A DNA stretch of 64,000 nt. It comes from Pyrobaculum oguniense TE7 (lineage in GTDB: Archaea; Thermoproteota; Thermoprotei; Thermoproteales; Thermoproteaceae). The notes under the pieces were generated by a model that was not told where the DNA came from, did no database searches, and worked only from the letters and a program-made list of their open reading frames with translations. The stretch spans positions 2,017,233 through 2,081,232 of the forward strand of contig CP003316.1 in the NCBI GenBank assembly GCA_000247545.1, given 5' to 3'. Positions 20,954-23,052 of the stretch are shown piece after piece. How positions within the stretch are numbered: position 1 is the first letter of the stretch; every line of letters starts with the position of its first letter. The translations under genes and the position numbers were made by a program.

Positions 20954-21583
20954 GTGTTTAAATGCGAGCCAGGCTGCGCCTTGTGTTGCAAGGCGAGCCC
21001 CGTAACAGTACTGCCGCACGAGGTGTACATACTGCAGAAGTACGCGGAGAAGCTCGGCGTAGAGGCGGTCTTTACCCCCGCCTACAAGGTGGCGGATAAG
21101 GTGCACGGCGTTAGAATCGCCCTTTCCTACCTCATGCACCTAGGCGAAGACGGCGCATGCCCCTTCCTAGACGCAGATAAGTGTTTGCTACACGACCTAT
21201 ACAAGCCGTTGACATGCCGCTCCTTCCCATATCTGCCCAAAATAATAAAATACGAGCTTGACCCAATGAAGCGCGAAATGCGGATAGATGTGAGATTTGT
21301 AATGTCTACCTTGTGCCCAGTAATACGCCGCGACTTAACGCCGGCAGACGCGGCAATGATGTCAAACATCAAGATAGCTGTTAAGTACGCCCCACGGGAA
21401 GCTGAGACGGCAGTAAAGACCTTAGAGAGGCGCTATCTATATGCGAAGATACTATCTGAGTTGTGGAAGAGAGGAGAAGTAGAGCTAGACGAAGAAGGGC
21501 GCTACCCGTTTTACCCAGTAATAAACGGATTTGCATTCATACGTCGGTATTACCCAGAATTGACGCTGGAGAAATTGTTGTAG
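20954..21583 (+). CDS. YkgJ-family cysteine-cluster protein
   Basis: This zinc- or iron-binding cysteine-cluster protein has an N-terminal CEPGCALCC, then ACPFLDADKCLLHDLYKPLT with a following CRSFP, the standard YkgJ pattern. Family members are linked to Fe-S or metal binding, but the role is unknown. The rest (about residues 95-209) is helical and carries a further Cys (LCPVIRRDL). GTG 20954 is about 24 nt after the TATA aatatataaag (20925-20935). It is intact although it sits between decayed sequence and the RNase P RNA gene. Confidence 0.85.
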   Translation: MFKCEPGCALCCKASPVTVLPHEVYILQKYAEKLGVEAVFTPAYKVADKVHGVRIALSYLMHLGEDGACPFLDADKCLLHDLYKPLTCRSFPYLPKIIKYELDPMKREMRIDVRFVMSTLCPVIRRDLTPADAAMMSNIKIAVKYAPREAETAVKTLERRYLYAKILSELWKRGEVELDEEGRYPFYPVINGFAFIRRYYPELTLEKLL

Positions 21584-21688: not shown

Positions 21689-21991
21689 TTGGCAGAGCTA
21701 CGATCCTCCGTGCTTGAGCAGATCGCGGCAGTTGTAGGCCCCTTCGTAGTGGGCCTGCTTGTCGGCATCGTTGCTAAGAGGTTGCTCTCCGCCGCCCTTT
21801 TCCTCATAGCCCTATTTGTAGTCCTAGCCGCCCTGGGCTATATGACCCCGGACCAGGTCTCTGCCTTTCTGCAACAGATGGGCTACGCCGCCAAGGAGGC
21901 CGTCTCCTACGCCATGCGCATAAAGGAGCTGGTGCCATACTCCTCAGCGGCGTTTCTCCTAGGGCTTATTATAGGGCTGTGGAAGGGGTAG
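21689..21991 (+). CDS. Small membrane protein, possibly FUN14-like
   Basis: A 100-residue hydrophobic protein has a Gly-rich first membrane segment (VVGPFVVGLLVGIVAKRLLS), a second segment (LFLIALFVVLAALGYM), an amphipathic middle and a C-terminal segment (AAFLLGLIIGLWKG). The Gly spacing with a following Lys resembles FUN14-domain proteins, but similarity is weak. TTG 21689 has an AT-rich aaataatg about 23 nt upstream. Its stop codon ends 2 bases before the 3' end of the convergent RNase P RNA. Confidence 0.6.
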   Translation: MAELRSSVLEQIAAVVGPFVVGLLVGIVAKRLLSAALFLIALFVVLAALGYMTPDQVSAFLQQMGYAAKEAVSYAMRIKELVPYSSAAFLLGLIIGLWKG

Positions 21992-21992
21992 G

Positions 21993-22198
21993 GGGCGCCG
22001 CATACCCCCGCTTCTGTTGGGGTATTTCTCTAACCCCCTACCCGGGCCTCGCCGCGGCCTCATAGGCCCTGCTTGGGGGCCGCACCCCCGGCTGGTTTTT
22101 ACCCCCGCCTTTCGGCGGCCTGCCGGGGGCCTCCGCGGGCGGTGCGGGAGGTTCCAGAGGGGGCCCGTCTCCGGGCTCCCCCCGTCCCCTCGGCGCCC
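21993..22198 (-). ncRNA. rnpB: RNase P RNA, minimal type T
   Basis: The minus strand folds as an RNase P catalytic core without a specificity domain. P1 pairs GGGCGCC (22198-22192) with GGCGCCC (21999-21993). P2 pairs GGGG (22189-22186) with CCCC (22022-22019). P3 is GCCCG-GAGA-CGGGC (22176-22163). Conserved region I reads GGAACCTCCCGC (22155-22144), and conserved region V reads ACAGAAGCGGGGG (22017-22005); these pair to form P4. A CCGCC-GAAA-GGCGG hairpin lies at 22118-22105. At about 206 nt it is far shorter than standard archaeal RNase P RNA but matches the reduced form known in Pyrobaculum and relatives. A TATA centred at 22220 is 22 nt from the 5' end. Confidence 0.85.
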
Positions 22199-22214
22199 TT
22201 GCCTAACTACTCAT

Positions 22215-22227
22215 CTATTTAAATACC
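22215..22227. promoter_or_regulatory. Shared bidirectional TATA element, RNase P RNA / binding protein
   Basis: The sequence ctatttaaatacc is centred near 22220, about 22 nt from the inferred RNase P RNA 5' end (22198, minus) and 23 nt from the start at 22243 (plus). It therefore appears to serve both an RNA gene and a protein gene. Confidence 0.6.
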
Positions 22228-22242
22228 TAGTGGCCCTTCGGC

Positions 22243-23052
22243 GTGTTGCTTGTGGGGAGCCTCGACGGCGTGCCGAGGAAGGTGGTGAGCCTCAACCCCT
22301 CCGTGAACGAGTTCCTTGCCCTCCTGGGGGTTGAGCTGGCCGGCCGCGACGTGTTTAGCTACAGGCCGAGGGAGCTCATGAAGGTGCCAATCATCGGCAC
22401 CTTTACAGAGCTGAGGGAGGACGCTGTTAGGGCCATTTCGCCAGATCTCACAATTCTCTACTACCCAGTGCAGAAGCACCTGGTAGATGTCGCCACCCGC
22501 TACTCGAAGGCGGTCGTGGCGGTGCCCACTCCCGTAGATGTAGATCACGTAGCCTCTATTTTTAGGTTTTTCGCCAAGCTGTTCGACCGCGACGAGGAGG
22601 GCGATAGGTTGGCGGGGGCTTACAGGGACTTGTTGAGGGGTCGACCCCTCTACGACGGGGTACTCGCAGTCATAAACCTCGGGGCTTACGACGTGGCTTG
22701 TACCATGTCTTACGTGGCCGATGCATTGACCAAAGCGGGGTTTAAATATATGCACGGCCTTCCGTGCGTCTTTAGACACTTCCCGGAGCCCCCAGCCGAG
22801 CTTGTAAGTAGGGCAAAGTTCGTAATCTACGAGGCGAGGGGGAGGCGCTTCTACGAGAACGAGGTAGACTTCCTGGGGGACAAGGAGTTCGTAGTGACGC
22901 CTAACGACACGTTGGCGCACTACGGCCCCTCTCTGCCGATAGATCTACAAATTGTGTGGGGCGCCGTCTCTAGGGGAGAGAGGTGGGCCGGCCCCACGTC
23001 CAGCATGTTGAGGCCAAGCATCAGGGACAGTTGGTATAAGCCCTATTACTGA
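22243..23052 (+). CDS. BtuF/TroA-type binding protein without a signal peptide
   Basis: This is a helical-backbone metal/cobalamin binding protein (BtuF-like). Visible are PRKVVSLNPSVNEFLALLG, IIGTFTELREDAVRAISPDL and the long linking helix DVDHVASIFRFFAKLF, which are typical of Fe-siderophore or B12 binding proteins. The start MLLVGSLDGVPRKVVS lacks a hydrophobic signal segment, so the protein may stay in the cytoplasm, or the signal may be lost. No permease or ATPase lies beside it. TTG 22243 is 23 nt from the TATA shared with the RNase P RNA. Confidence 0.75.
   Translation: MLLVGSLDGVPRKVVSLNPSVNEFLALLGVELAGRDVFSYRPRELMKVPIIGTFTELREDAVRAISPDLTILYYPVQKHLVDVATRYSKAVVAVPTPVDVDHVASIFRFFAKLFDRDEEGDRLAGAYRDLLRGRPLYDGVLAVINLGAYDVACTMSYVADALTKAGFKYMHGLPCVFRHFPEPPAELVSRAKFVIYEARGRRFYENEVDFLGDKEFVVTPNDTLAHYGPSLPIDLQIVWGAVSRGERWAGPTSSMLRPSIRDSWYKPYY

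What the first reader, a model, noticed from the sequence alone, without database searches (positions are those of the whole stretch)
21993..22198. Minimal type T RNase P RNA with no specificity domain, sharing a TATA with a protein gene
The minus strand shows P1 (22198-22192 with 21999-21993), P2, a GNRA-capped P3 and a P4 formed by GGAACCTCCCGC and ACAGAAGCGGGGG. The whole RNA is only about 206 nt. Such reduced RNase P RNAs are known in Pyrobaculum and relatives but are missed by ordinary covariance models, so this stretch is easily annotated as empty or as a false plus-strand protein (22017-22334). Its TATA at 22215-22227 also appears to drive the divergent binding-protein gene.
Basis: partly seen in the sequence, partly recalled or inferred. 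Interest (0 to 1): 0.72.

Follow-up and report, generated by a model that had tools for sequence, protein, structure and literature searches.

The report
Known minimal RNase P RNA, Pyrobaculum oguniense
This is the already catalogued, unusually small RNA part of the tRNA-trimming enzyme RNase P of the hot-spring archaeon Pyrobaculum oguniense; the one new detail is that the gene lies in opposite directions in different Pyrobaculum species and here seems to share a promoter box with its neighbour.

Summary
The observation and the identification are correct, but not new. The minus strand 22199-21992 matches Rfam RF02357 (RNaseP-T) end to end at 215 bits, E 2.6e-50, and is the only RNase P RNA found in the genome. 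The contig is 2,436,033 bp, the published length of the P. oguniense TE7 chromosome. That genome's paper reports its RNase P RNA, and P finder (2020) lists this gene as T-type at NC_016885.1 2039219-2039431 minus; ours is 2039224-2039431. Helices P1 and P4 covary across relatives. A block of roughly 110 nt holding the conserved specificity-domain motifs of ordinary archaeal RNAs is absent. 'Missed by ordinary models' holds only for RF00373 (21.4 bits, cut-off 84). The plus-strand ORF 22017-22334 is not conserved as a frame. The shared TATA is plausible: a palindrome, TATTTAAATA at 22216-22225, sits 16-17 nt from both genes. Not found in the papers searched: rnpB lies in opposite orientations between the same neighbours in different Pyrobaculum, so the shared box is a local arrangement. 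Ordinary overall.

The parts
21992..22199 (-). type T RNase P RNA gene (rnpB)
   Evidence: RF02357 1-208, 215 bits; only copy in genome; listed in PMC7191817
22191..22198 (-). P1, 5' strand (pairs with 21993-22000)
   Evidence: Rfam alignment; in 27 relatives 7 of the 9 P1 pairs show changes on both sides, 98% of cells paired
21993..22000 (-). P1, 3' strand
22157..22182 (-). P3 with GAGA (GNRA) loop at 22168-22171
22144..22151 (-). P4 5' strand with bulged U at 22149; GGAA of conserved region I lies just 5'
   Evidence: 27 of 27 relatives pair at all 7 P4 pairs; 3 pairs change on both sides
22005..22011 (-). P4 3' strand; ACAGAA of conserved region V (22017-22012) lies just 5'
22080..22142 (-). 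P5 (22142-22139 with 22083-22080), long stem (22130-22122 with 22092-22084) and GAAA hairpin (22118-22105): what stands in place of the specificity domain
   Evidence: 5 of 9 pairs of the long stem covary; A-type relatives carry roughly 110 nt more here
22036..22077 (-). P15/P16-like arm, with conserved AGGGCC..TGA..GAGGCCCGGGTAGG
22216..22225 (.). palindromic TATA-like box TATTTAAATA between the two divergent genes
   Evidence: unique in window; 16-17 nt from each gene
22243..23052 (+). divergent gene, remote relative of haem/B12-type periplasmic binding proteins
   Evidence: HmuT 3md9 E 3.6e-6; Pfam Peripla_BP_2 19 bits, below its cut-off
21689..21991 (+). small 100-aa gene that ends at the base before the RNA gene, convergent with it
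   Evidence: conserved beside rnpB in Pyrobaculum and Thermoproteus-type genomes

Best explanation
22199-21992 on the minus strand is rnpB of Pyrobaculum oguniense TE7: the RNA subunit of RNase P, type T, consisting of the catalytic domain with only a stem and hairpin where the specificity domain should be. With its protein subunits it removes the 5' leaders of pre-tRNAs; P4 with its bulged U and conserved regions I, IV and V form the active centre (function inferred from the family). It is transcribed leftward from the TATA-like box at 22216-22225, which probably also serves the divergent gene at 22243 (inferred from spacing).
For: End-to-end RF02357 match at 215 bits. Sole RNase P RNA in a 99.6%-complete genome. 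Same gene listed as T-type for NC_016885.1, and RNase P RNA reported in the genome paper. T-type RNAs in 43 of 45 genomes of the order; the one well-covered exception, G001, has an A-type RNA instead. Covariation in P1, P4 and the long stem. Specificity-domain motifs absent next to A-type relatives. RPP21, the partner of that domain, was not detected while the archaeal controls were, matching the literature that Thermoproteaceae lack RPP21 (PMC4919917). TATA spacing matches that of relatives.
Against: No transcript or activity data for this species were examined. Pop5 and RPP30 were not detected by Pfam models even at E 10, though RPP29 was, weakly; the two may be too divergent for those models, but this was not resolved.
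Confidence: 0.98

Rival explanations
1. The stretch encodes a plus-strand protein (22017-22334) and the RNA match is incidental.
For: The 105-codon frame is open, and tblastn finds similar translations in relatives.
Against: No Pfam match even at E 10. The similarity lies almost wholly within the RNA gene. At the homologous place the frame has a usable start codon in only 6 of 17 genomes, hits a stop within 3 codons in two, and ends at lengths from 62 to 112 codons in the others.
Confidence: 0.01
2. The RNA is a decayed RNase P RNA and another enzyme does the work.
For: About a third of the ordinary RNA is missing, and some protein subunits were not detected by Pfam.
Against: The same reduced form is kept with compensatory changes across the order; no other RNase P RNA exists in the genome. 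PMC7191817 states that T-type RNAs remain catalytically active, citing Lai et al. 2010.
Confidence: 0.01

Closest known systems
RNaseP-T (Rfam RF02357); type T RNase P RNA of Pyrobaculum, Caldivirga, Vulcanisaeta and Thermoproteus (Lai et al. 2010; P finder 2020)
   Same: Length, all helices, conserved regions, lack of the specificity-domain motifs; this very gene is listed in P finder's table.
   Different: Nothing of substance; the end pair of P1 is A-C instead of G-C.
Archaeal A-type RNase P RNA (Rfam RF00373)
   Same: Catalytic-domain core: P1-P5, P15/P16-like arm, conserved regions I, IV, V.
   Different: The window RNA lacks roughly 110 nt holding the CAGAnACGAnACC and GGnTGAA motifs and scores 21.4 bits against a cut-off of 84.

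Membership tests
RNaseP-T (RF02357) | Match above the curated score over the whole model | tested here: met
   215 bits against 60, positions 1-208
RNaseP-T (RF02357) | P4 from conserved regions I and V, with bulged U | tested here: met
   Paired in 27 of 27 relatives, 3 pairs with compensatory change
RNaseP-T (RF02357) | Specificity domain with conserved regions II and III absent | tested here: met
   Gap of roughly 110 nt against four A-type RNAs
RNaseP-T (RF02357) | Only RNase P RNA of the genome | tested here: met
RNaseP-T (RF02357) | RPP21 missing from the genome | tested here: met
   No Pfam match; the four archaeal controls are positive. A highly divergent RPP21 cannot be excluded
RNaseP-T (RF02357) | Cleavage of pre-tRNA with its proteins | not testable with these tools
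   Needs biochemistry
Archaeal A-type (RF00373) | Score above the curated cut-off | tested here: not met
   21.4 against 84 bits

The most novel reading that the evidence does not exclude
The rnpB gene has been turned around in place, between the same two neighbours, at least once in Pyrobaculum, possibly aided by its own P1 inverted repeat. In P. oguniense and G027 the reversed gene now runs off the neighbouring binding-protein gene's promoter, made two-way by a symmetric TATA box.
Probability: 0.5. Interest if true: 0.35.

Novelty: already known. Interest (0 to 1): 0.15.

Why it matters
As an RNase P RNA it confirms a published annotation and adds nothing new about the enzyme. The smallest natural RNase P RNAs matter for understanding what the specificity domain does, but that was set out in 2010. 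The in-place reversal of an essential RNA gene with a shared promoter box is a modest lead on how archaeal promoters become bidirectional.

Tried and rejected
Plus-strand protein reading of 22017-22334: rejected. A second RNase P RNA in this genome: none. MIMT1_1 and MIR7510 hits in the permissive Rfam scan are far below their cut-offs and are chance. The second RF02357 hit in G029 looked like a paralogue but is a 3'-half remnant in a Thermoproteus-like segment. The weak third hit in G029 and the second in G035 lie in near-identical sequence that reads like a protein-coding gene (not tested) and were set aside. Whether the reversed gene order arose once or more could not be settled: two changes are the fewest on the rpoB codon-position 1+2 tree, but one clade is not rejected (p-AU 0.351). 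Lai et al. 2010 is not in the library, so it is cited through other papers. I did not find the flipped gene order in the papers seen, but no search was aimed at it.

Full report
Observation. The minus strand 22199-21992 matches Rfam RF02357 (RNaseP-T) over all 208 positions with 215 bits, E 2.6e-50, the only Rfam match above cut-off in the 64-kb window. The RNA folds 3.2 standard deviations better than shuffled sequence.

Covariation. On 27 T-type RNAs, P1 has seven and P4 three pairs with changes on both sides, and P4 is paired in every sequence. On 17 Pyrobaculum and Thermoproteus-type RNAs, five pairs of the long stem 22130-22084 also show changes on both sides; on that set all five summary measures exceed every one of 500 shuffles and all slid controls. 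In the larger set the count of further pair types does not exceed the shuffles (125 of 500 reach it). Cells count sequences and not events, so these numbers support the structure without being probabilities.

Specificity domain. Aligned with four A-type RNAs from the same class, the window RNA and other T-type RNAs lack a block of roughly 110 nt that holds CAGAnACGAnACC and GGnTGAA, while the catalytic core aligns. A stem and a GAAA hairpin remain at that place.

Genome and priority. The contig is 2,436,033 bp long, the published size of the Pyrobaculum oguniense TE7 chromosome (PMC3558965). That paper states that the RNase P RNA was identified by homology to Pyrobaculum members, citing Lai et al. 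2010, and counts it among the RNA genes. P finder (PMC7191817) lists P. oguniense TE7 NC_016885.1 2039219-2039431 minus as T-type; our match is 2039224-2039431 minus. The finding is therefore already known. T-type RNAs occur in 43 of 45 genomes of the order; of the two without, G006 is 67% complete and G001 carries an A-type RNA.

Proteins. RPP21 was not detected, RPP29 was found at 27.5 bits (cut-off 27), and Pop5 and RPP30 were not found at E up to 10. Absence of RPP21 agrees with PMC4919917. The other two absences are inconclusive, since Pfam models may be too weak for these proteins.

The plus-strand ORF. 22017-22334 has no Pfam match. Its tblastn similarity in relatives lies almost wholly inside the RNA gene, and the frame is not kept: at the homologous place only 6 of 17 genomes have a usable start codon, two meet a stop within 3 codons, and the rest end anywhere from 62 to 112 codons. 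It is not a gene.

The shared TATA. TATTTAAATA at 22216-22225 is a perfect palindrome and unique in the window. It is the only TATA-like run in the 43-nt gap. In nine genomes with this neighbour, a TATA-like box lies 16-21 nt before the GTG of the binding-protein-like gene, and in eight of them one lies 16-21 nt before the 5' end of rnpB; in the ninth (L007) the best-scoring rnpB candidate is at 28 nt and a weaker one at 17, and its best-scoring candidate for the protein gene is at 5 nt with equal ones at 17 and 18. In P. oguniense and G027 one run meets both spacings; in G029 and G035 the gap is 92 nt and holds two separate boxes. The scoring was a simple match count, so sharing is well supported by position but not by transcripts. 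The neighbour is remotely related to haem- and B12-binding proteins (HmuT E 3.6e-6).

Orientation. In L003, L008, L013 and L017 the small gene, rnpB and the binding-protein gene lie in one direction; L007 has rnpB and the binding-protein gene in one direction. In the window and L004 the two protein genes keep their direction and rnpB alone is reversed; in L010 and L015 rnpB is divergent from the binding-protein gene but the small gene was not found nearby. The ancestral state is probably co-directional, since the Thermoproteus-type G037 has the small gene upstream in the same direction. The number of reversals is unresolved. The P1 inverted repeat at the gene's ends suggests a mechanism, which is inference only.

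Noticed in passing
window 21689-23052; L003, L004, L007, L008, L010, L013, L015, L017: rnpB lies in opposite orientations next to the same neighbour genes in different Pyrobaculum species.
   Followed up: partly
L032 about 2441-2550 (G029:C1:567368-567547): A 3'-half rnpB remnant inside a segment about 94% identical to the rnpB locus of G042 (a Thermoproteus-type genome): looks like a laterally acquired locus with its 5' half deleted.
   Followed up: partly
G001:C3:108724-109040 (+) and 182389-182705 (-), L054 and L055: Two A-type RNase P RNA hits of equal length and score (112.2 bits) in opposite orientation on one contig; duplicate or assembly artefact.
   Followed up: no
window 20954-21583: The CxxCxxCC-domain gene also differs in orientation relative to the small gene: same direction here and in L013, opposite in L003, L004, L008, L009, L017 and L018.
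   Followed up: no
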